From the IMG/VR virus record IMGVR_UViG_3300022562_001344, positions 18,277 to 82,276 of that record: DNA of 64,000 nucleotides. One strand, 5' to 3'. The position numbers were made by a program, and so were the translations under genes. Below the pieces are notes generated by a model. The model was not told where the DNA came from. It made no database searches and saw only the letters and a list, made by a program, of their open reading frames with translations. The DNA comes from a virus. Positions 33,698 to 51,011 of this stretch are shown here, piece after piece (positions within the stretch are counted from its first letter, which is position 1; every line of letters begins with the position of its first letter).

Positions 33698-33728
33698 TTG
33701 ACCTCCGGACGTCTGCCCCTCTTATGCT
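33698..33728 (+). promoter_or_regulatory. sigma-70-like promoter TTGACC / TATGCT
   Basis: TTGACC (33698-33703) and TATGCT (33723-33728) are 19 bases apart, 11 bases before ATG 33740. This is the only clear -35/-10 pair seen before an accessory gene. Confidence 0.5.
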
Positions 33729-33739
33729 CCATAGCAGGC

Positions 33740-36505
33740 ATGGGGATCTCCCTAGATAGAGCCGCCCGGGCTCTCATGGATGCACCTGATGTCGCCAAGG
33801 CTGCCCGGGCCCTCATAGATGGGTTTGACGTCGTCAAGGCTGCCCGAGTGCGTGCCGCCTGGTCTCCGGTCTCCGTCCGCGTCGCCGTCCGTTTCTTGGA
33901 GGCCGCTAAGGTTGATGACCTGATAGCCGCCAATCCGGACCTGGAGTATGAGATTAGGGAGCTCTCCGAGGAGGATCCGTCCAAGAAGGGTAAGTACCTC
34001 GAGTGGAGCGTCAAGCAGTTGAAGATGAAAGCCAAAATGGAGGACTTGGTTCCGACCATTCGGGCGTTTCACGAAAACCAGCCGAGGTTCGAGAAGAAAG
34101 ACATCAATCAGTACAAGACACTGAAGGAGCTCGAGGACGCGGTCAAGGCCCTCCCGGAGTCGAAAACCAAGGAGAAAGCCCGGGTGAAGTCCGAAGGGTC
34201 CAAAAAACTATGGGAGAACGACACCCACGCTCTGTTCAGGATCGAGACCCGCGACGCCTGCATCCAATATGGGAAGGGCACCAAGTGGTGCATAACCATG
34301 AGGGCGCACAACTACTGGGAGTCGTACAAGAGCGGCAATAACGTCTTTTACTTCTTGATCGACAAGAGGCAGTCCGAGCCCGAGAAGGAGAGCGATAACT
34401 TCTCTGACGTCAAGAGCCCTAACCAGTATTCGAAGATCGCGTGGGCCGTCCGCAGAAATATGGAGGACAACAGCGTTGAAAGCGTCACGATCTTCGATGC
34501 CAGAGACAAGGTGATCAATAAGCGGACCATCCCGGGTATACCGGAGTTCGCCCAGATCAATCAGATGGTCATTGATGACGCACCGAACGCTCCGGACGGA
34601 CCTATCGTCTCCATGCGGAAGGGTACCATCACACCCAAGGAGCTCTACGATTACCTGTCAGTCCTGGACTCTCAGACCTTGATCGCCAACATTCAGTATG
34701 TGCAGTCCAGTGAACAAAACGACCCGGTTCTGTTCAAGATCCTGGATCTGAAGAAGGACGGCCTGTCGGAGCGCGGCATCTTGGCGATTTTGGATCGTGT
34801 CAAAGGAGGGACGTCGGAGGCGGACGAATTCTTCTTGAAGCTCGCCAGGGAGGGCGTGAAGATCAACCTTGATCGTGTGCAACAGGGACCCGAGTTTGAT
34901 GAGATTTTGAAAATTCGCATGGAGGGCGAGCCTGACTTTCTTGGCGTCCACACCAATGCCAAATATATCGCCAAGATCTCGGACGATGGGCTTCGCGAGA
35001 AGCTCGCCGATAAGTATAAGGGCCGGATGGCGGAGCTTGGAATCATCAAAGATAAGGACGCCCTGGAGAAGTTTCTTCACGACGAGGATCCGAAAGTTCG
35101 TGAGTCCACGATCAGAGGTTTGCAGACTTTCCAAGTCGACATGCTCGGCAACATCCTCAAAATGGTGGACGACCCGGACCCGTTGGTTCGGAAGGCGTTG
35201 GCCGACGTCCCGGCTTGGGCCTGGAAGAAATCTGATGTGCCCCCGGAGCAGCTCCATGAGGTCCTCGTGAAGCTCCTACACGACGAGGATCACGGTGTTG
35301 TGGAGAGCGCTGTCAACGGCGACCTCTCAAAGGTCGACCACGAAATCCTCAGGAAGATTTCGAAGCATCCGAGCGAGAAGGTTCGGGCGAAGTTCCACTC
35401 CAACCCGCAAGTCGACGAGGGCCTGAAGCCCATGAACGACGAGTCAGACGTCGTCAGGCGGTCGATCATCAATCACCGGAAGCTGAGTCAAGACCAGCTC
35501 GACCGGATGGCGAAGAGCGAGGACGTGAACGACAGGAAGCTCGCCCTCAACTATGTCCAGGAGAAGGGGTATGGCCCGAGCGGCAACTGGACATCTTCTG
35601 GGGCAAAGAATGTTCGTGAGTTCGCGAGCAGGCTCTTGAAGGACGCCGATCCCGGGGTTCGGATGTTGGCCAACGAGGTCATGTTCATATATGGTGGTCG
35701 ATACGACACGACGGGCTTCGAAAACTCAACTAACCCGACTGTGGTTCAGGAGTGGATTGGAATAGACCCCGAGCGGGCGAAGTCCGCGTTGGAAAAGCCG
35801 CCCTCGCAGCTCAACGAGGGAGGAGTCGACAGAATTCAGTCTTATGCCAAGACTGTGCTCGCTGTCAACGAGCTCATGGGTTATCTGTCGGGGAAGAGGG
35901 ACGACCTGCCGGAGATGCCGAACAGGAGTTTGTCGACGGTGACGACCTTGCTTCCGAAGGAGTATTTGCCAAAGCTGCTTGAGAAACTCCCGTTCCCTAA
36001 TATGGAGCAGTGGTCATATTATGGGGTCTTTGAGGACCTTGCCAAGAGAATGGACAGCAAGTACGCGATGGAGATTTTGACGAAGATTCCAAACCCGTAC
36101 TATGCTCCTACGGCCGTCACCGCGCTGTTCAAGAAGCTTAGTCAGGACGACATCCGGAAATTCATCGACTCCGACAGCACTATAATCCGGCTGACCGTGG
36201 CCCGTCGCATTGACAAAGCGCACCTCCCGGAGTTGATGGACGACACGGATAACGAGATCCGCAGAGTCGTGGCCGAGAGGATAGACCCGGAGCACTTGCC
36301 GAAGATGATGAAGGACACCGATCCGAAGGTCCGGAGGCGGGTGGCCGAGAGGATCGCCCCGGAATACCTCGAGCAAATGCGGAAGGACAAGAGCATCAAG
36401 GTCCGGGGCATTGTCAAGGAGCGCCTCGGACTGGCGAGCCTCAGCACGCGCGAGCTATTGGCGACCGTGTACCTGGTGGCCGAGGGCTTCTGTTCGCCTT
36501 ACTAA
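33740..36505 (+). CDS. large HEAT/LRV-type repeat protein with WC-motif domain
   Basis: 921 residues from ATG 33740 (the TTG at 33698 falls in the promoter). A 13-residue duplication (AARALMDAPDVAK / AARALIDGFDVVK) starts the protein. Residues about 165-250 hold YGKGTKWCITM...FYFLIDKR, a domain I have seen in phage proteins but cannot name. From about 400 on there are helical repeats of HEAT or leucine-rich-variant style (HDEDPKVRES, DDPDPLVRKA, KDADPGVRML, and about four 20-residue units near the end with D-x-x-VRR-x-VAERI). The gene looks more AT-rich than its neighbours. Possibly a transferred gene for protein binding. Confidence 0.75.
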   Translation: MGISLDRAARALMDAPDVAKAARALIDGFDVVKAARVRAAWSPVSVRVAVRFLEAAKVDDLIAANPDLEYEIRELSEEDPSKKGKYLEWSVKQLKMKAKMEDLVPTIRAFHENQPRFEKKDINQYKTLKELEDAVKALPESKTKEKARVKSEGSKKLWENDTHALFRIETRDACIQYGKGTKWCITMRAHNYWESYKSGNNVFYFLIDKRQSEPEKESDNFSDVKSPNQYSKIAWAVRRNMEDNSVESVTIFDARDKVINKRTIPGIPEFAQINQMVIDDAPNAPDGPIVSMRKGTITPKELYDYLSVLDSQTLIANIQYVQSSEQNDPVLFKILDLKKDGLSERGILAILDRVKGGTSEADEFFLKLAREGVKINLDRVQQGPEFDEILKIRMEGEPDFLGVHTNAKYIAKISDDGLREKLADKYKGRMAELGIIKDKDALEKFLHDEDPKVRESTIRGLQTFQVDMLGNILKMVDDPDPLVRKALADVPAWAWKKSDVPPEQLHEVLVKLLHDEDHGVVESAVNGDLSKVDHEILRKISKHPSEKVRAKFHSNPQVDEGLKPMNDESDVVRRSIINHRKLSQDQLDRMAKSEDVNDRKLALNYVQEKGYGPSGNWTSSGAKNVREFASRLLKDADPGVRMLANEVMFIYGGRYDTTGFENSTNPTVVQEWIGIDPERAKSALEKPPSQLNEGGVDRIQSYAKTVLAVNELMGYLSGKRDDLPEMPNRSLSTVTTLLPKEYLPKLLEKLPFPNMEQWSYYGVFEDLAKRMDSKYAMEILTKIPNPYYAPTAVTALFKKLSQDDIRKFIDSDSTIIRLTVARRIDKAHLPELMDDTDNEIRRVVAERIDPEHLPKMMKDTDPKVRRRVAERIAPEYLEQMRKDKSIKVRGIVKERLGLASLSTRELLATVYLVAEGFCSPY

Positions 36506-42355: not shown

Positions 42356-43303
42356 ATGCGGATCCTTATAGTAGAGGATAACCACCAGACCCGGCAGCTC
42401 CTGGTATACCTGCTGCAGGAAAGGTTCATGGAGGAGGCCAAGTTCCGTGAGGCCTCCGATCTAAAGACAGCCTTCCATTACCTGCGCATGTGGAAAGACG
42501 CCGACAGGAGAAGCCGCATCGAGGGAAAGGACGTGGACCCGATCTGCATCGTCCTTGACTTGTCCCTTCCGGATTCCGTCGGGCGAGAGACTTTCCTGAA
42601 GCTGTTCAAGGCTTTCCCCGATATACCTATCGTCGTCATGACGAACACGAACGACCGGTCCCTCGCCGAGGAGATGGTGGACATCGGTGCCCAGGATTAC
42701 ATCCTGAAGAATTTCACCGACGAGGAGGAGGTGTTCAGGCGCATATCCTTCGCCATAAGGCGACATCGCCGGTCCGTGTCCCTCCCCCCTCCCGACGCGG
42801 CCAGTATTCACAGGCTCGACTCGACGAAGGCTGAGCTCCTTAGCGCGCATGAGAGCGGTGAGCACAGGGTTCTGGAGGCCAAGAGCACGGAGCTCCTCAG
42901 CGGCATCACCGAGCTCGTCAAGAAGACCTTCGTGAGCGTCCAGGAGGTCAACATAAAGCAGGAGAAGCTCTCTCTCTCCCAAGAGCACATGGGGAAGGAG
43001 ATACAGACCTTGACGGACGAGGTCACCGGGTCCGGGACCCGGCGCTCCATGCGGTCCGAGATAGAGATCACCAACAACGAAGTCAAGAACATTAAGTCGG
43101 ACTTCGGTGAGTTGAAGGAGAGGATCGACAGGGTCGAGGACAGAAGGGAAGAAGAGGTGAAACGCAAGGACTCGGCCTCGGTTCAGATCAAGACGCATCA
43201 CATGGACAACCGGACGAAGATCATCCTTGCGGCCCTAAGTCTCTTCGGTGCACTCGTCACGGCCTGGCTCGCTGCGAAATACGGGATTAGCGTGAAGCCA
43301 TGA
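42356..43303 (+). CDS. response-regulator receiver fused to coiled coil and C-terminal membrane anchor
   Basis: 315 residues. The receiver domain (1-140) has all key residues: E7/D8, phospho-acceptor D68 (IVLDLSLPD), T96 (VVMTN) and K118 (YILKN). No DNA-binding output follows. Instead comes a long polar coiled coil (about 150-275) and one C-terminal transmembrane helix (about 288-308, KIILAALSLFGALVTAWLAA). The phosphorylation state could alter a membrane-tethered coiled coil. The ATGA overlap with the kinase gene shows one operon. Receivers of this build in phages are, to my knowledge, very unusual. Confidence 0.88.
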   Translation: MRILIVEDNHQTRQLLVYLLQERFMEEAKFREASDLKTAFHYLRMWKDADRRSRIEGKDVDPICIVLDLSLPDSVGRETFLKLFKAFPDIPIVVMTNTNDRSLAEEMVDIGAQDYILKNFTDEEEVFRRISFAIRRHRRSVSLPPPDAASIHRLDSTKAELLSAHESGEHRVLEAKSTELLSGITELVKKTFVSVQEVNIKQEKLSLSQEHMGKEIQTLTDEVTGSGTRRSMRSEIEITNNEVKNIKSDFGELKERIDRVEDRREEEVKRKDSASVQIKTHHMDNRTKIILAALSLFGALVTAWLAAKYGISVKP

Positions 43304-44460
43304 CCTTCGTCGATATTCTTCTGGCCGTTTTCGCGGTTTTGCTGCTCGCGGCTTTCCTCTCTTGTTTGAAGCGTCCGAGGACCGTAGAGATTCCGTTCTT
43401 CGACGACAAGTTCTTCGGTAAATCCCCAGATCCGTTGTGCGTGATCAGGCGGGACGGGAGGCTTCTCCGGGTGAACCGGACCCTCTCTGAAGCCCTGGGG
43501 TATGACGCGGCCGAGCTTCTCTCGACCTCGCTCTTCGACCTGGTTCATCCGGACGACCGGGAGCGCACGATTTCCGAGCTCAGGGAGCTGCGGGGCGAGT
43601 CTTCAATTGTCTCTTTCGAGAATCGGCTCGCCTGCAAGGACGGGTCCGTTCGCTATCTGTCTTGGCGGCTTTTCCTGTCCCTGGACGGGGATATCTACGG
43701 TGTGGCTCAAGACAAAACAGACCAGGTCCTTAGGGAGGAGAGCCTCCGTGAGCTCAATGATGACCTCGAGCAGCTTCTGTACATAGCGTCCCACGATCTC
43801 CGCGAGCCCCTCGTCGGGGCCGCCGGCTTCATCTCCCTCGTCACGACGAAATACTCTGATTCCCTCAAGCCGGAGGCCTCGGACTTCCTGAAAGAGGCCC
43901 TCGACGGTATCCGCCTCATGGAGAAGAAGATCGACGACCTCCTCCTGCTCTCAAGGGCCGGACGCATCGACACAGACGAGCACTTCCATATGGCCGGTGC
44001 CATCAGGGACGCGATGGCGTCCCTGAATGGCCGGCTTACGGACGTGGAGGTGGTCCTGGAGATGAACGAGGACGAGGACCAGGTCGTGGGAAGCCGGGTC
44101 ATGGTCGGTCAGGTTATACAGAATATCCTCGGGAACGCCCTGAAGTATCGCTCGTCGGACAGATCCCTGAGGGTGGCTCTCAGGGTTGCTAGGGACGGAC
44201 GGTTCGTGAAGGTGTCCATATCCGACAATGGGATAGGGTTTGATCCGCACCAGGCAGAGCGTGTTTTTCAGGCCTTCCAGCGTCTTCATTCCTCGGACTC
44301 TCCGTACTCCGGGACGGGCATAGGTTTGGCTCTTTGCCGTAAGATAGTGACGAGGCACGGAGGGTCCATCTGGGCCGAGTCCGTGGAAGGCAGAGGTTCG
44401 ACCTTCCATTTCACGCTTCCGGCAAGGAAAGATGGCGAAGACGGACATCCTGCTGATTGA
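43300..44460 (+). CDS. PAS-domain sensor histidine kinase
   Basis: 386 residues. One N-terminal membrane helix (about 4-22) with no periplasmic sensor. PAS domain (about 38-148, SPDPLCVIRRDGRLLRVNRT ... LVHPDDRE). HisKA with phospho-acceptor H165 in IASHDLREPL. HATPase with N box QNILGNALKY (N275, N279), G1 DNGIGFD (309-315) and G2 GTGIGLAL (338-345). Every catalytic motif is intact. It should autophosphorylate and pass phosphate to the receivers on both sides. It overlaps the next gene by 29 bases. Confidence 0.95.
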   Translation: MTFVDILLAVFAVLLLAAFLSCLKRPRTVEIPFFDDKFFGKSPDPLCVIRRDGRLLRVNRTLSEALGYDAAELLSTSLFDLVHPDDRERTISELRELRGESSIVSFENRLACKDGSVRYLSWRLFLSLDGDIYGVAQDKTDQVLREESLRELNDDLEQLLYIASHDLREPLVGAAGFISLVTTKYSDSLKPEASDFLKEALDGIRLMEKKIDDLLLLSRAGRIDTDEHFHMAGAIRDAMASLNGRLTDVEVVLEMNEDEDQVVGSRVMVGQVIQNILGNALKYRSSDRSLRVALRVARDGRFVKVSISDNGIGFDPHQAERVFQAFQRLHSSDSPYSGTGIGLALCRKIVTRHGGSIWAESVEGRGSTFHFTLPARKDGEDGHPAD

Positions 44461-44842
44461 GGACGTCGCGGCCGACGTGAAGCTCATCTCCATAGCCCTT
44501 CGGACCTCCGTCCCGGACTTGAACCTGCGCGTCGCCCGTGACGGCGAGGCTGGGATGGCGGAGCTTCTCAAGAGGCGTCCCGGCCTTCTTCTGCTCGACC
44601 TGAACATTCCGAAGAGGAGCGGGCTCGAGGTTCTCGAGGACCTCAGGGCGGACTCGGTCCTCCATACCCTCCCGGTCATCATCCTTACGAACTCCACGTC
44701 TCCGAGGGACGTCGAGTCCGCCTATCGTGCCCGCTGCAACGCGTATGTCCGGAAGCCGGTCGGGTTCGACAAGCTCATGGAGGCCGTAGAGTCTATCAAG
44801 CGGTTCTGGCTCGACCTTGCTGTCATACCGGGGATTTCGTGA
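44432..44842 (+). CDS. CheY/Rcp1-like response regulator
   Basis: 136 residues, a stand-alone receiver. Acidic pair E10/D11, phospho-acceptor D56 (LLLLDLNIPKRSG), T86 (VIILTNS) and K108 (YVRKP). The NIPKRSGLEVLEDLR segment and length resemble phytochrome-partner regulators of the Rcp1 type. No output domain, so it probably acts by binding a partner or as a phosphate sink. AAGGAAAG before ATG 44432, inside the kinase gene. Confidence 0.93.
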   Translation: MAKTDILLIEDVAADVKLISIALRTSVPDLNLRVARDGEAGMAELLKRRPGLLLLDLNIPKRSGLEVLEDLRADSVLHTLPVIILTNSTSPRDVESAYRARCNAYVRKPVGFDKLMEAVESIKRFWLDLAVIPGIS

Positions 44843-45261
44843 AGCGTATCCGTGATCTAGTTCATCCCAGGGCCCTCCCTGGCTCGGATTACGAGGATAT
44901 TCGAGACCTCATGCACTCCAGCCCCCCTGTGGACCCCGGCCGGACCTTGGCTGAGGATCGCGCCGGCGTCGCCTTGCCCGGGGACCCCGTTGAGGCGATC
45001 GACAACCCCTACGTCGGGAAGAACCCGCAGGTCGTCCTTCGTTTGCTTCAGTCCGGCACGCTCTCCCCGGACCAGGAGGGCCTGGCCCGCGAGGCTATCT
45101 CCGTCTTCGAGAGCGTCTCTGGGGAGAACCTGACCGGCGGTATCGGGCGCGCTGTCCCGATACTGAAGAAGAGCGGAGACCAAGCTTCTGTCCGGGAGGT
45201 CGACGAGGACGTAACTCGAAACCCGGACTACGACCCGGAGCTGGCCGACCTTTTCCGCTAG
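44839..45261 (+). CDS. hypothetical protein, last gene of the two-component operon
   Basis: 140 residues, GTG start overlapping the regulator stop by 4 bases. No domain recognised; Pro/Asp-rich with helices at about 65-75 and 80-95. It ends NPDYDPELADLFR, matching the end of the protein at 5455. It may be an output or accessory protein of the signalling operon. Confidence 0.72.
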   Translation: MKRIRDLVHPRALPGSDYEDIRDLMHSSPPVDPGRTLAEDRAGVALPGDPVEAIDNPYVGKNPQVVLRLLQSGTLSPDQEGLAREAISVFESVSGENLTGGIGRAVPILKKSGDQASVREVDEDVTRNPDYDPELADLFR

Positions 45262-45534: not shown

Positions 45535-46275
45535 ATGGAAATGCTCCCTCACCGTCGAATCATCCTCCCGCTCGACGTCTCGACCCCGGTTGAGGCCATC
45601 GACCTCGCCTCTGACTTGCACGAGCACGTCGGGATGGTCAAGGTCGGCCTTCAGCTCTTCACCACGGCCGGTCCGTCCCTTCTCGAGCTCAGGGACGAGC
45701 TCGGTCTCAAAATGTTCCTGGACTTGAAGCTGCACGACATCCCGAACACCGTAGCCGGGGCTGTCAAGGCGGCTGTGCGCCACAACGTCGACTACCTGAC
45801 GGTCCATGCGTCCGGCGGAGCGAACATGCTCAAGGCTGCCGTGGACGCTGCGTCCAGTGACGTCGTTCTTCTCGCTGTTACCCTCCTTACCTCCATTGAT
45901 GGGCTCGCTCTCCGGAACGAGCTTCGCGTTCGTGGCCCGAACCCAACCGATCCGAAGAGCTACGACGGTGACGAGGTTCGTTACCACGTCCTCCACATGG
46001 CCAGGATGGCGTGGGAATGCGGGGTCCGCGGTTTCGTTTGCTCCCCCCTCGAGGTGAAGGCTCTCCGAGACGAGTTCGGGCCGGACGCGGTCCTGGTTGT
46101 TCCCGGGATCCGTCCCGAGGGATCCGACGCCGGGGATCAGGCGCGTGTTGCTACCCCGGCAGCCGCGATGAAGGATGGGGCGAGCTATCTCGTCATCGGG
46201 AGGCCCATCACTCAGGCGGAGGACCGGGTGAAGGCCGCGCGTACGATTGCGGAAGAGATTCGTCCGTACACATGA
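45535..46275 (+). CDS. pyrF: orotidine 5'-phosphate decarboxylase
   Basis: 246 residues, full-length group-1 enzyme of pyrimidine synthesis (OMP to UMP). Catalytic residues are in place: D14 (LPLDV), K36 (MVKVG) and the D63-x-K65-x-x-D68 charge network in MFLDLKLHDIPNTV. The phosphate-binding end has VVPGIRPEG and LVIGRPIT. GAAAGGA lies before ATG. Nothing suggests decay. A phage copy could raise UTP/CTP/TTP supply during infection. Confidence 0.95.
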   Translation: MEMLPHRRIILPLDVSTPVEAIDLASDLHEHVGMVKVGLQLFTTAGPSLLELRDELGLKMFLDLKLHDIPNTVAGAVKAAVRHNVDYLTVHASGGANMLKAAVDAASSDVVLLAVTLLTSIDGLALRNELRVRGPNPTDPKSYDGDEVRYHVLHMARMAWECGVRGFVCSPLEVKALRDEFGPDAVLVVPGIRPEGSDAGDQARVATPAAAMKDGASYLVIGRPITQAEDRVKAARTIAEEIRPYT

Positions 46276-46611: not shown

Positions 46612-47166
46612 ATGGCCTTCATAGGGCTCAAGGTGCCCGACGACGCCTCGAGGCTTCTTGCTGGGGTCGAGGTCCCTGGTGAGCGCCACTCGGCCTCCGA
46701 CATGCACGTAACCATTCTGTTCCTCGGACAGGATCTGCCTATCACCGAGGTCGCTAAGGCCATGTGCGCGGCCTTCCAGGTCACCTCGAGGACTCGTCCC
46801 TTCGTCTGTGGGGTCAAGGATGTCTCTTCCTTCCCGCGCGGCGCCGACGGCCTTCCAGTCATCTGCCCCGTCGTGTCCCCGGGCCTCATGGTTCTCAATG
46901 CCGCCCTGAGGGCGGAGTTTGACCGGCTTGGTCTCGGATATTCGAAGAAGTACCCCGAATACAAGCCGCACGTGACCTTGTCCTACGACAGGGTCCCAGG
47001 AGGCCCGGACTCTTACTCCGCCCCTCTCCCCGGCCCCCTGACGTGGACGGCCTCCGACATGGTCATCTGGGGCGGGAACGAGGCCGACGAGATCCTTTCG
47101 GTCAACCTTCCGTTCGTCCTCGGCCCGATTGAGCGTGCCGCGCGCCGGATAGCCAGAGTTGGCTGA
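46612..47166 (+). CDS. 2H phosphoesterase (LigT / 2'-5' RNA ligase-like)
   Basis: 184 residues. Two HxTx motifs, H32-V-T34 (MHVTILFLGQ) and H120-V-T122 (PHVTLSYDR), at the usual distance make the twin-histidine active site. Family members open cyclic phosphodiesters or 2'-5' links in RNA and small nucleotides. In phages, relatives such as T4 Acb1 destroy CBASS cyclic-nucleotide signals and others repair tRNA ends. Which substrate applies here cannot be read from sequence. The C-terminus (ERAARRIARVG) is basic. Confidence 0.88.
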   Translation: MAFIGLKVPDDASRLLAGVEVPGERHSASDMHVTILFLGQDLPITEVAKAMCAAFQVTSRTRPFVCGVKDVSSFPRGADGLPVICPVVSPGLMVLNAALRAEFDRLGLGYSKKYPEYKPHVTLSYDRVPGGPDSYSAPLPGPLTWTASDMVIWGGNEADEILSVNLPFVLGPIERAARRIARVG

Positions 47167-47270: not shown

Positions 47271-47729
47271 ATGGCCTGTGAAAACCAGAACTGTCAATGC
47301 GGTTCCGAGTGCAAGTGCGGCGGTGAGTGCTCGTGCGGACGTCCGAGCCTCGCCTCCAGGGTCGCCGCGAAGTTCCTGGAGGCTCAGGAGCCGGCCTTCC
47401 CCGACTTCTGGGTTACCCGGGAGGACATCGCGGAGGTTTGCCCACCCTGCGCGGAGCGCATGGCCTCGCTTCGGATTTCGCGCGTCCGCGCGTCCGCGAT
47501 CTTCGGCCAGGACATGCTTCGCATGGCCGGCGAGGAGACCGCGGACAAGTGGAAGGGCATGCCGCATGGATGGACCAACGAGTCCCGTAAGAAGTTCTGG
47601 GACTCTGTCGGCGGGTCCGTCGACAAGTGCATCGACAAGATGGGCGGGAAGGTCGACGATCCCGGCGCTTTCTGCGCCTCCCTGAAGGACCGGGTCGAGA
47701 AGTCGACTCATTGGCGCGGCGAGGATTAG
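47271..47729 (+). CDS. protein with metallothionein-like N-terminus
   Basis: 152 residues. The first 23 residues hold seven cysteines in CxC pairs (C3, C8, C10, C14, C16, C20, C22), like a small metallothionein. A SLASRVAAKFLEAQEP segment (about 26-41) links to a folded part ending in GWTNESRKKFWDSVGGSV...CIDKM...DDPGAFCASLKDRVE, a C-terminal module I have seen in phage proteins of unknown role. The gene is convergent with, and overlaps by 4 bases, the minus-strand glycosyltransferase. Confidence 0.78.
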   Translation: MACENQNCQCGSECKCGGECSCGRPSLASRVAAKFLEAQEPAFPDFWVTREDIAEVCPPCAERMASLRISRVRASAIFGQDMLRMAGEETADKWKGMPHGWTNESRKKFWDSVGGSVDKCIDKMGGKVDDPGAFCASLKDRVEKSTHWRGED

Positions 47730-49732
47730 TCCGTCTGCCACGACCCTGGGTCTAGGCCCTCCGGGTCCGCCTCTATCTTGTCCGACGGCCCGACCGCTGT
47801 CTCCGGGGTCCCCTCCCGTGGCGACTCGCGAAGGCCTTCCCTATATTCGTCCTCCGAGATGCGCTGCGTATCCAGCATGGCCTTCATGATCCTGTGGAGC
47901 AGCGCCATCCTTCCCGGAGTTACCGCCCCGTTTGGCCCGAAGTACGCTCCGTTCGGACGGGGGAGCACCGACGCGAGGAGCAGGGACTGTGAGAGGGACA
48001 GCTGCATTGGCTCGGCATTGAAATACTTCTTGGCGGCAGCCTTGATCCCGTACACGCCCGGCCCGAACTCGACCACGTTCATGTAGAGCTCAAGGATCTT
48101 CTCCTTTGACAGCTCTTGCTCCAAGTACGTGGTGAGGACAGCCTCTTGGAGCTTCCGCGAGAGGGTCTTCTCCCTCCCGAGCCACAGGTTCTTTGCGAGC
48201 TGCATCGTTATGGTGCTGCCGCCGCGCGCGAACCTCCCCTCATGTATGTCGGCTTTTAGGGCGTTCTCAAAGGCCTCCACCAGAAACCCATGGTGTCCGT
48301 TGAACCCCGGGTCCTCCATCGTCTTCAGGGACATTGGGACGAACCTGGAGACGAGTTGGATCGGGACCCACTCCGGTGATCCTGGCCCTGTCCTGACTTC
48401 GCGCTCTTTCTTGTCGTAGCCGAGCGCTTTCCTGACGAAAGGTCTTCGAAGGGACTTGACGCTGATCCCGTCCGGAAGGTTTTCCACGGAGCATCCGTTC
48501 TTGAGTTTGATCCTGACGTCCGGCTTCTTTCTGTCCGGTAGGTCCACGTCCACCTGGATCTTCCAGGACAGTTTGCCAGACAATCTCGCTCCCGGCGTTA
48601 TCGTCCTCACGAGAGCTCTTGGCACGGAGTCCAGGACGTCCTGGCAGTCTGACTCGTCCATTTCCGACCGAAGCTGGACTTCTGCCCGCCCGACCTCTGC
48701 TTCCGCATGGACCGTGGCTTTTCCGATGTGGATGTCTGCTACCGCCTGTGTCCCGGAGTCCATCAGTCTGGCGTCTCCAGATATTTCCACCCTCCCCGTT
48801 TCGATCTCCGAGTTCGTCAGTGCTCTGTGAGACGTCCCTATTGACCCAAACCATGCTTTTCCGCTTAGTCCGTCTGTCCGGATCTTTGCCTCCGCCCCAA
48901 ACTTTATGAGCCGTATCCTGCCCGGAATCTCCAGGTGTTTAGCGGACACTGACGCTGCGATCCCTCCGGGCATCCCGCTCATTGAGGCGATCAGATCCTC
49001 CGCCTCCGCCTTCCGTTTTCCGATCTCTGCTATCGCCCTCTTTGCTCGTACCCTGACGGGCGACTTCATTGCGGGGACTGCTGGCATCCTGAACCCGGCA
49101 CCTTCCGTTTCTCTGCGCTCTTCCCTTCTTTCCGGGATCTTGACTTCAGCGTCTTTCACGGTTATCTCGTACCCGTCCTTTTCTTTCCATAGGTCCAGGC
49201 CGGAAAGTCTTACCTCTCTCTTCCCGGATTTCGTTGTGACGAGCTCCGCGTGAGCCTTCCCGTTCTCCCACGAGACCCCGGCCGCAGCTACCTCAGAGTT
49301 TCCCCCGTCCGGGCCTTTCCACACGACTTTGATGCCGTGCACGCTCTTCTTGATTCCCGGGCCTCCGTTTCCTCTCCCGTTCCCTCGTCCGGGCCACCCT
49401 TGGTACATCCGTTCTAGGTCCTTCGCCCTCCCATTCAGGGAGATGGACCCGCCCTCCGCTTGAACAACCTTGACCTTCATCCCGCTCAGCTCGACCTCTA
49501 TCGAGTTGAGGCTCACCTCTTGGCCAGGGAAGAACGGGGAGGTTATCTGCACTTCCTTTAGCCGGACGGACCCCGGATGGATGGACACGTCTCCTGCTTT
49601 CAGGACTAGCCCGCGCCCACGTGCCCACTCTTCTGCTTTGTACCTCGCGTAGTGCGGGGCTGCGGCCGCAGATCCACCCAATGCCGCGACGACGACCACC
49701 GCGTACACGACTGCTTTGTGTCGTTTCTTCAT
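47726..49732 (-). CDS. monofunctional GT51 peptidoglycan glycosyltransferase with AsmA-like N-terminus
   Basis: 668 residues from ATG 49732 (MKKRHKAVVYAVVVV; the in-frame extension to 49888 overlaps the next gene and is rejected). One membrane helix (6-26). Residues about 40-440 have the repeated beta pattern of AsmA-like envelope proteins. Residues about 462-605 are a GT51 domain: catalytic E473 in MEDPGFNGHHG, GGSTITMQLAKNLWLG (504-519), KEKILELYMNVVEFGPGVYG and AAKKYF. No transpeptidase domain. Such enzymes polymerise lipid II in the periplasm. This architecture resembles host envelope proteins of diderm bacteria. Confidence 0.9.
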   Translation of the reverse strand: MKKRHKAVVYAVVVVAALGGSAAAAPHYARYKAEEWARGRGLVLKAGDVSIHPGSVRLKEVQITSPFFPGQEVSLNSIEVELSGMKVKVVQAEGGSISLNGRAKDLERMYQGWPGRGNGRGNGGPGIKKSVHGIKVVWKGPDGGNSEVAAAGVSWENGKAHAELVTTKSGKREVRLSGLDLWKEKDGYEITVKDAEVKIPERREERRETEGAGFRMPAVPAMKSPVRVRAKRAIAEIGKRKAEAEDLIASMSGMPGGIAASVSAKHLEIPGRIRLIKFGAEAKIRTDGLSGKAWFGSIGTSHRALTNSEIETGRVEISGDARLMDSGTQAVADIHIGKATVHAEAEVGRAEVQLRSEMDESDCQDVLDSVPRALVRTITPGARLSGKLSWKIQVDVDLPDRKKPDVRIKLKNGCSVENLPDGISVKSLRRPFVRKALGYDKKEREVRTGPGSPEWVPIQLVSRFVPMSLKTMEDPGFNGHHGFLVEAFENALKADIHEGRFARGGSTITMQLAKNLWLGREKTLSRKLQEAVLTTYLEQELSKEKILELYMNVVEFGPGVYGIKAAAKKYFNAEPMQLSLSQSLLLASVLPRPNGAYFGPNGAVTPGRMALLHRIMKAMLDTQRISEDEYREGLRESPREGTPETAVGPSDKIEADPEGLDPGSWQTD

Positions 49733-49841
49733 CTGGGTCTGTCTTACACTTGCCGGGTGTTTCCCGGATCTCGTTGATCTTTTAATAATGGAAAGCGCCG
49801 CTGCTTCGTAGCGTGACTTCGACTGAAAGGAGTCACGATCA

Positions 49842-51011
49842 ATGCCGCAGACCCAGCCCATGCAATGGAAGAGGGGCGACTTCCACACCTTCTACGCCCA
49901 GATGAAGATCCGCGTCGGCGGCGTGAACGGGAACCAATCCATCGACATCCTCGCCGGGGACGAGTTCGAGTACGATGGGAGCATCGTCAAGTACGCCGGT
50001 GCTGAGTTCCCGCAGCCCGGCCTCCGTGGTGCCGTCAGGGACGGATGGGCGACCCTGGATCCGGACGGGCAGATTCCTGCGGCTTTCTCCGCCGTTAGGA
50101 GCGTTGCTAAGTCCCAGACGATCAACAAGGACTTGAGCCGCGTCCAGCGCACGGCCCCGGTCCCCATGGAGTCCGACAGCCTGGACGAGGAAACCGTTCT
50201 GGAGATTGGCGATCGTTCGGCCGCCATGGACCCGGTTACCGGGAAGGGACACCTCACCAAGGATCACAATCGCCGGAAGGCCTCCATGACCGGCCACAGG
50301 GCGACGCTGCAGAGTATGCAGGTCACTCAGAGTGACCTCGACCAGCAGGACCACACCCCGATCGCCAAGGTCAAGTCCAGGGCCAATCTCGGGGCCGTCG
50401 ACATCACCAAGGGGAACAACTCCGGACTCGCTCGCGAGATCGAGACGCGGAGCCACGAGACCGGATATGGGGCTTATGACGGACCCCGGAGGGGGAAGAA
50501 TGTCGTCGAGCGCGAGGGCGTCACCATCGTCACGAACGTCGGGGACATGGACCGTTCCGTCCAGGTCGGGGACGAGGAGGGTGGCGTCGTTGTCGGAAAG
50601 GTTCGCCACACTGACACCAAGCGCACCCGGGAGGGCGTGGAGGTTCAGGACACGAGCGGCCGCCCCGGAAAGCCCAGGACAGCCGCGAAGGCCAAGGCCG
50701 CTGCCAAGCCCAAGGCCGCTGCCAAGCCCAAGGCCGTCGCCAAGGCCGTGAAGGTCGTGACGAAGCCTGCCAAGAAGGCTGTTTCTCCGGCCCCTACTCC
50801 TGCTTCCGGATCCGCAGCCAAGCTCCGCATCGCGAAGAAGATCTGTTCGGACTTCCCGGAAGATTGGAACTTTTTCGGGAAGACGGAGGACAAACTGGCC
50901 CGGCTCAAGGAGCTCGGGTCCGACCCCGACTTGATCGATGCTCTCTTCGCCTCGGAGAGTTCTTCCGTGAAGTCTGCCCTCCAGAAGGCTTTCCCCGGCC
51001 ATTTCTCCTGA
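49842..51011 (+). CDS. virion-type protein with Ala/Lys-Pro repeat
   Basis: 389 residues, strong ribosome binding site (AAAGGAG). N-terminal domain (1-95) is beta-rich (VNGNQSIDILAGDEFEYDG ... FPQPGLRGAVRDGWATL). The middle is polar. At about 285-320 lies a histone-H1-like AAKPKA repeat, then a C-terminal helical domain (about 335-389, RIAKKICSDFPEDWNFFGKTEDKL). The basic repeat suggests DNA or surface contact. The 109-base gap before it (49,733-49,841) has an A/T-rich TTTTAATAATGG that may be a promoter element. Confidence 0.75.
   Translation: MPQTQPMQWKRGDFHTFYAQMKIRVGGVNGNQSIDILAGDEFEYDGSIVKYAGAEFPQPGLRGAVRDGWATLDPDGQIPAAFSAVRSVAKSQTINKDLSRVQRTAPVPMESDSLDEETVLEIGDRSAAMDPVTGKGHLTKDHNRRKASMTGHRATLQSMQVTQSDLDQQDHTPIAKVKSRANLGAVDITKGNNSGLAREIETRSHETGYGAYDGPRRGKNVVEREGVTIVTNVGDMDRSVQVGDEEGGVVVGKVRHTDTKRTREGVEVQDTSGRPGKPRTAAKAKAAAKPKAAAKPKAVAKAVKVVTKPAKKAVSPAPTPASGSAAKLRIAKKICSDFPEDWNFFGKTEDKLARLKELGSDPDLIDALFASESSSVKSALQKAFPGHFS

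What the first reader, a model, noticed from the sequence alone, without database searches (positions are those of the whole stretch)
42356..45261. A complete two-component signalling operon inside a phage genome
Three overlapping genes encode a receiver with coiled coil and C-terminal membrane anchor, a PAS histidine kinase with every catalytic motif (H165, N/G1/G2 boxes), and a CheY/Rcp1-like receiver, followed by a fourth gene of unknown role. No DNA-binding output is present. The chain kinase to membrane-tethered receiver is unlike a transcription switch. Inference: it may sense host state (through PAS) and control a membrane process such as lysis timing or superinfection, or drain or rewire host phosphorelays. 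Phage-encoded kinases with a matched receiver pair are, to my knowledge, hardly described.
Basis: partly seen in the sequence, partly recalled or inferred. Interest (0 to 1): 0.92.

Follow-up and report, generated by a model that had tools for sequence, protein, structure and literature searches.

The report
Phage two-component cassette with membrane-anchored receiver
This huge-phage fragment carries its own signalling kit - a sensor kinase, a small free receiver and a receiver tied to the membrane by a coiled coil - and the same kit recurs in at least twelve other large viral contigs, so some giant phages probably sense the state of the infected cell and act on its membrane, perhaps to time lysis.

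Summary
Window 42356-44842 encodes, with overlapping genes, RR1 (receiver, helices, C-terminal membrane helix), a PAS/HisKA/HATPase kinase and RR2, an Rcp1-type single-domain receiver. The fourth gene is an orphan and not part of the module.

It is not a chimera. RR1-kinase-RR2 in the same order occurs in 12 further distinct viral contigs (up to 619 kb). RR1 identity falls to about 20%, yet every RR1 keeps the acidic pocket, phospho-Asp, Thr and Lys, and has a membrane helix; kinase catalytic residues are invariant in all aligned. Searches of bacterial contigs, 396 genomes of one bacterial phylum, plasmids and GenBank phages found only receiver-level similarity to RR1. The window belongs to a huge-phage clade related by capsid to phage G. 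The cassette is sporadic, so accessory.

In a split form (kinase, RR2, receiver, separate coiled-coil/membrane protein) it occurs in five more contigs and a Microcoleus phage. Three cultured Alteromonas phage lineages pair a small membrane/coil protein with a lone receiver; two place the pair beside lysis genes (endolysin or holin).

Best reading: a phage phosphosignalling module acting on the inner membrane, most likely on lysis timing (inferred). No description was found in the open literature searched. New variant of a known kind.

The parts
42356..43303 (+). RR1: receiver + long helical/coiled-coil region + C-terminal membrane helix (315 aa)
   Evidence: Pfam Response_reg 6.7e-15; AlphaFold2 model pLDDT 74, receiver plus helices 145-167, 170-224, 232-273, 285-310; KD hydropathy 2.26 at residue 289; 12 relatives in the same gene order
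42557..42559 (+). RR1 phospho-acceptor Asp68
   Evidence: invariant in all 13 fused RR1 proteins together with the E/D-D pocket, Thr96 and Lys118
43208..43285 (+). RR1 C-terminal membrane helix (residues 285-310)
   Evidence: hydropathy; all 13 fused RR1 proteins have a hydrophobic window of at least 1.6 downstream of the receiver
43300..44460 (+). PAS histidine kinase with N-terminal membrane helix (386 aa)
   Evidence: Pfam PAS_3 6.4e-15, HisKA 1.4e-9, HATPase_c 9.6e-29; catalytic residues invariant in 17 aligned kinases
43792..43794 (+). kinase phospho-acceptor His165
   Evidence: read directly from the sequence; invariant in 17 kinases
44432..44842 (+). RR2: Rcp1-type single-domain receiver (136 aa) with C-terminal FW...P motif
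   Evidence: Pfam 2.1e-19; PDB hits 6xvu, 5te9, 1i3c, 1jlk, 1k68 at 1e-24 to 1e-22; D56 and K108 invariant in 16 aligned, T/S86 conserved
44839..45261 (+). orphan gene overlapping RR2 by 4 nt; probably co-transcribed but not a conserved part of the module
   Evidence: no Pfam or PHROG match; no relative in phages or viral contigs

Best explanation
A self-contained phage phosphosignalling module whose output is a membrane-anchored coiled coil. Shown by sequence: a complete kinase (PAS, HisKA, HATPase), two receivers with intact phosphorylation sites, one of them tail-anchored through a helical coil, and conservation of the three-gene set. Inferred: the PAS domain reads a state of the infected cell (redox, energy or envelope); the kinase phosphorylates RR1 and also RR2, which like other output-less receivers acts as a competing acceptor or shuttle that sets gain and reset time; phosphorylation changes dimerisation of the RR1 receiver and so the packing of the attached coiled coil at the inner membrane; that coil then gates a membrane event, most likely holin or antiholin action and therefore the time of lysis.
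For: All 13 RR1 proteins keep E/D-D, D68, T96 and K118 and a membrane helix down to about 20% identity; kinase H, N, G1 and G2 residues are invariant in 17 and RR2 D56/K108 in 16. Gene order is conserved although flanks differ; RR1, kinase and RR2 distances correlate with each other (r 0.65-0.93), and for RR1 and RR2 better than with the capsid protein. A split form keeps the parts adjacent: kinase-RR2-receiver-coil/membrane protein in L225, L226, L229, L235, L238 and in the Microcoleus phage. In cultured Alteromonas phages a small membrane/coil protein overlaps a lone receiver: R9Y1 (tail fibre, membrane-coil, receiver, endolysin phrog_315 1e-38) and R8W (tail fibre, holin phrog_1356 7e-14, membrane-coil, receiver); the two membrane-coil proteins are homologous (E 2.5e-10).
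Against: No holin or endolysin was recognised next to the window's cassette (not every neighbour was scanned). The cassette is sporadic: 1 of 23 and 0 of 22 large contigs of related capsid subclades carry it besides those found through RR1 itself, which fits a host-specific accessory as well as lysis control. Profile comparison of the fused RR1 C-terminus with the separate coil/membrane proteins is not significant (probability 33%), so the link is one of architecture and position, not proven homology. PHROG hits of the coil proteins to hemolysin/holin families are weak (E 0.002 or worse). No biochemistry exists.
Confidence: 0.42

Rival explanations
1. Same phosphorelay with membrane output, but serving entry exclusion or envelope remodelling: phosphorylated RR1 clusters at the inner membrane and blocks DNA entry by competing phages or stabilises the infected envelope.
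For: Sporadic accessory distribution in huge phages is typical of phage-phage and phage-host conflict genes; the window also carries a peptidoglycan transglycosylase and a 2H phosphoesterase with a weaker Acb1-like match near the cassette.
Against: Known exclusion proteins are small membrane proteins needing no kinase (own knowledge); the recurrent placement of receiver + membrane-coil pairs beside lysis genes in Alteromonas phages points elsewhere.
Confidence: 0.2
2. Rewiring of host signalling: the phage kinase and the free receiver RR2 feed or drain host phosphorelays (a sink or decoy), and the membrane anchor merely localises RR1 beside host sensor kinases.
For: RR2 is an output-less Rcp1-type receiver, a type that can act as a phosphate sink; the kinase resembles cellular bacteriophytochrome-type kinases; phage proteins that act on host two-component systems exist (PIT4, PMC10714779).
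Against: The three genes stay together and their distances correlate with each other, as expected for a self-contained cognate set; the conserved coil and membrane helix of RR1 are not needed for a sink.
Confidence: 0.2
3. Virion- or tail-associated signalling set: the split operons lie among tail-type genes, so the proteins could be delivered with the particle and act at the start of infection.
For: Split operons L225, L229, L235, L238 lie next to genes that look like tail genes (judged by eye, no family match).
Against: The fused cassette of the window is not in a recognised tail cluster; no virion-targeting feature was seen.
Confidence: 0.08
4. Host DNA joined to a phage contig by misassembly, or a recent passive capture without function.
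For: The window is one metagenomic contig; kinases and receivers are common in bacteria.
Against: Same order in 12 other viral contigs, nine of which carry the same capsid family; RR1 full length absent from 396 genomes of one bacterial phylum; cassette codon usage within the window's range; catalytic residues conserved under strong divergence.
Confidence: 0.02

Closest known systems
Bacteriophytochrome / Cph1-Rcp1 two-component pairs (cellular)
   Same: Kinase core of the ASHDLxEPL type matches bacteriophytochrome kinases; RR2 matches DrRR, Rcp1, RcpA and RcpB over nearly its whole length including the C-terminal W/P motif
   Different: The window kinase has a PAS and a membrane helix but no matched chromophore-binding GAF or PHY domain; a second, membrane-tethered receiver is part of the set
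Cellular kinase + receiver-GGDEF pairs, e.g. a Geobacteraceae genome (L259)
   Same: A related receiver next to a kinase of the same type
   Different: The bacterial receiver carries a GGDEF-like enzyme domain; the phage one carries a coil and a membrane helix
Microcoleus phage My-WqHQDG (OR578706) kinase-receiver operon
   Same: Kinase, RR2-like receiver, second receiver, coil/membrane protein in one operon
   Different: Receiver and membrane coil are separate genes; order is kinase first; three of the four genes are annotated as hypothetical proteins
Lone receivers beside lysis genes of Alteromonas phages R9Y1 and R8W
   Same: Intact receiver next to a small membrane/coil protein
   Different: No kinase next to them; membrane helix at the N-terminus of a separate protein
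phiCDHM1 agrC (PMC3901668)
   Same: Phage-encoded histidine-kinase-like gene
   Different: GHKL kinase of a quorum-sensing locus, no identified receptor domain and no phage response regulator
Stenotrophomonas phage vB_SmaS_Bhz63 PhoP-like regulator with overlapping neighbour
   Same: Response regulator plus an overlapping gene that the depositors place in PRK11100
   Different: Regulator has a DNA-binding Trans_reg_C domain; the neighbour had no Pfam match here

Membership tests
Two-component signal transduction system (HisKA kinase + receiver) | Kinase with phospho-accepting His, N, G1 and G2 boxes | tested here: met
Two-component signal transduction system (HisKA kinase + receiver) | Receiver with acidic pair, phospho-Asp, Thr/Ser and Lys | tested here: met
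   RR1 and RR2
Two-component signal transduction system (HisKA kinase + receiver) | Cognate His-Asp phosphotransfer | not testable with these tools
   needs purified proteins; only co-conservation and correlated divergence shown
Rcp1-type single-domain receivers (RR2) | Match to Rcp1-group structures including the C-terminal W...P extension | tested here: met
Bacteriophytochrome (kinase) | PAS-GAF-PHY chromophore module upstream of the kinase | tested here: not met
   only PAS found before HisKA
Transcription-factor response regulators (OmpR, NarL, NtrC) | C-terminal DNA-binding domain | tested here: not met
   RR1 has only Response_reg and helices, RR2 only Response_reg
XhlA / holin families (RR1 C-terminus) | Significant match to the family profile | tested here: not met
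   no XhlA match in the RR1 scans; weak PHROG hemolysin/holin hits only to the separate coil proteins
Phage lysis-timing regulator | Effect on holin triggering | not testable with these tools
   gene-neighbourhood evidence only

The most novel reading that the evidence does not exclude
Phages possess a widespread but overlooked class of phosphorylation-controlled membrane switch: a receiver coupled, fused or as a neighbouring gene, to a membrane-anchored coiled coil. Some phages leave it to be driven by other kinases (lone receivers beside lysis genes); some huge phages bring their own PAS kinase and buffering receiver, making infection timing responsive to the physiology of the host through a phage-owned two-component system.
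Probability: 0.35. Interest if true: 0.9.

Novelty: new variant of a known kind. Interest (0 to 1): 0.74.

Why it matters
If true, lysis time, a central life-history trait of phages, would be set in some phages by reversible phosphorylation rather than only by holin build-up, and the phage would own the sensor. It gives a concrete, testable set of genes: similar parts exist in small cultured phages of Alteromonas (R9Y1, R8W), where one change in the receiver could be tested for an effect on lysis. It also adds a signalling class to the accessory genes of huge phages.

Tried and rejected
Chimera: rejected by 12 same-order contigs. Fourth gene as a component: rejected. Homology of the RR1 C-terminus with XhlA or with the separate coil proteins: not significant, kept only as architectural similarity. 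Core gene of the capsid clade: rejected, sporadic. L217 (membrane-coil-receiver fusion upstream of a kinase): its receiver lacks most aligned catalytic residues and its N-terminal helix is below the hydropathy cut-off, so not counted. Many 'Listeria / Enterococcus / Staphylococcus phage' hits are unannotated records and were not used as evidence. Promoter scan: nothing above chance. BFVD fold search of the RR1 model: the significant matches look receiver-level; the long helices make matches uninformative. A repeated N-terminal 'RVAxRFLE' motif was looked at and left.

Full report
What is there. The window is bases 18277-82276 of an 82,276-base IMG/VR virus record. It encodes a terminase (phrog_2, 6e-25), portal and major head protein (phrog_2522, 1e-45). 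The head protein is 77% identical to that of the 485-kb uncultured phage LR745208, 46% to Tunturiibacter phage Tunturi_5 (309 kb) and 37% to Bacillus phage G (498 kb), so the window is very probably a fragment of a huge phage.

The module. RR1 (42356-43303), kinase (43300-44460) and RR2 (44432-44842) overlap by 4 and 29 nt. RR1 is a receiver, helices predicted with moderate confidence (pLDDT 74), then a hydrophobic helix 5 residues from the C-terminus. The kinase has an N-terminal membrane helix, PAS, HisKA and HATPase_c. RR2 is of the Rcp1 type. The fourth gene (44839-45261) has no relatives.

Same order elsewhere. RR1-kinase-RR2 in this order is found in L002, L006, L007, L008, L009, L193, L194 (L195 nearly the same), L214, L242, L222 (L223 a duplicate), L230 and L250: 12 distinct contigs of 113-619 kb. 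Nine of the twelve carry the capsid family phrog_2522 or were fetched by their capsid gene; L006, L009 and L242 showed no match, and these are called viral by IMG/VR only. In L009 the kinase lacks a PAS domain; only the window kinase among the six in alignment A7 has a membrane helix, so the sensor end varies while receivers and catalytic core stay.

Selection. RR1 keeps E/D-D, D68, T96 and K118 in 13 of 13 and always a membrane helix, at identities to the window from 45% down to about 20%. Kinase H165, N275, N279, D309, G311, G313, G338, G340 and G342 are invariant in 17 aligned kinases (one of them bacterial), RR2 D11, D56 and K108 in 16. This is the signature of working phosphotransfer. Distances of RR1, kinase and RR2 correlate with each other (r 0.65-0.93); correlation with the capsid protein is lower for RR1 (0.53) and RR2 (0.19) and 0.74 for the kinase. 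These correlations use few, related sequences and are only suggestive of the three genes travelling as a unit.

Accessory and phage-borne. Of 23 large contigs with head proteins 77-100% identical to the window's, only one (618,736 bases, L250) has a cassette, a divergent one; of 22 further large contigs of the sister subclade none has, although six other members do. Many of these contigs are fragments. In bacteria only the receiver part is matched: best 6e-35 over residues 3-126 in 396 genomes of one phylum, against 1e-102 or better for the close cassette members; the most divergent cassettes also score only at receiver level with that profile, so a divergent bacterial counterpart could be missed. 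A bacterial neighbour of this type is a kinase plus receiver-GGDEF pair.

A split form. Five contigs (L225, L226, L229, L235, L238) have kinase, RR2, a 257-275-aa receiver without membrane helix, then a separate 130-189-aa coiled-coil protein with a C-terminal membrane helix. The GenBank Microcoleus phage My-WqHQDG has kinase, receiver, receiver and a 179-aa coiled-coil protein with a hydrophobic stretch near its C-terminus. L228 has kinase, RR2 and a membrane protein. Sequence homology between the fused and separate coils is not significant; the inference is from architecture and position.

The lysis link. In the cultured Alteromonas phage R9Y1 the order is tail fibre, 121-aa membrane-coil protein, receiver, GH108 endolysin, with 4-nt overlaps between the last three. 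In R8W, a T7-like phage, it is tail fibre, holin, 98-aa membrane-coil protein, receiver, membrane protein. The two membrane-coil proteins are homologous (2.5e-10). PT11-V19 has the same pair among tail-related genes. So two phage lineages place a receiver and a membrane coil next to lysis genes.

Mechanism, with steps marked. Shown: domain content, intact active sites, membrane helix, conserved order. Inferred: kinase senses through PAS; phosphorylates RR1 and RR2; RR2 buffers; RR1 phosphorylation alters the coil at the membrane; the coil acts on lysis timing (0.42). That the module is a functional two-component system with a membrane output of some kind I hold at about 0.85.

Literature. Ten full-text searches of the open-access library found phiCDHM1 agrC without a response regulator (PMC3901668), PIT4 acting on host systems (PMC10714779), and a jumbo-phage survey that discusses only a divergent receiver never linked to histidine kinases (PMC7824862). 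No paper on this cassette was found; most subscription journals and all bioRxiv preprints are outside that library.

Noticed in passing
L009 10300-11558 (IMGVR_UViG_3300050505_000468): CRISPR-like array, about 17 copies of a roughly 36-nt repeat (CTGTGAAGAGCATCCCGGGCGCGATGAGCTCGGGAC) spaced 72-76 nt, degenerating at one end, just downstream of the cassette in a 138-kb viral contig. Cas genes not searched.
   Followed up: partly
window 47726-49888 (-): Phage-encoded GT51 peptidoglycan transglycosylase (Pfam 1.5e-44) with an N-terminal membrane helix and the lowest codon score of the scored genes; DNA homologues in related huge phages.
   Followed up: partly
window 45535-46275: Orotidine 5'-phosphate decarboxylase (pyrF, 7.5e-54) directly downstream of the cassette region.
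   Followed up: no
window 46612-47166: 2H phosphoesterase matching 2_5_RNA_ligase2 (2.6e-8) and, more weakly, the anti-CBASS protein Acb1 (3.7e-7).
   Followed up: no
window 33698-36505, 47271-47729; also L002 and L230 small genes: A short motif RVAxRFLE / RVAxKFLE / RVAxRFKE recurs near the N-terminus of otherwise unrelated phage proteins; 3 pattern matches in the window set against 0.35 expected from shuffles.
   Followed up: partly
L352 (OM287554), L353 (MW043865), L354 (OP751378): Cultured Alteromonas phages carry stand-alone receivers next to membrane-coil proteins, two of them next to lysis genes; annotated as hypothetical or as putative DNA-binding response regulator although only a receiver domain is detected in those tested.
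   Followed up: yes
L355 (OR797046): Stenotrophomonas phage Bhz63 carries a PhoP-like DNA-binding response regulator overlapping a 276-aa protein that the depositors place in PRK11100; no Pfam match found for the latter.
   Followed up: partly
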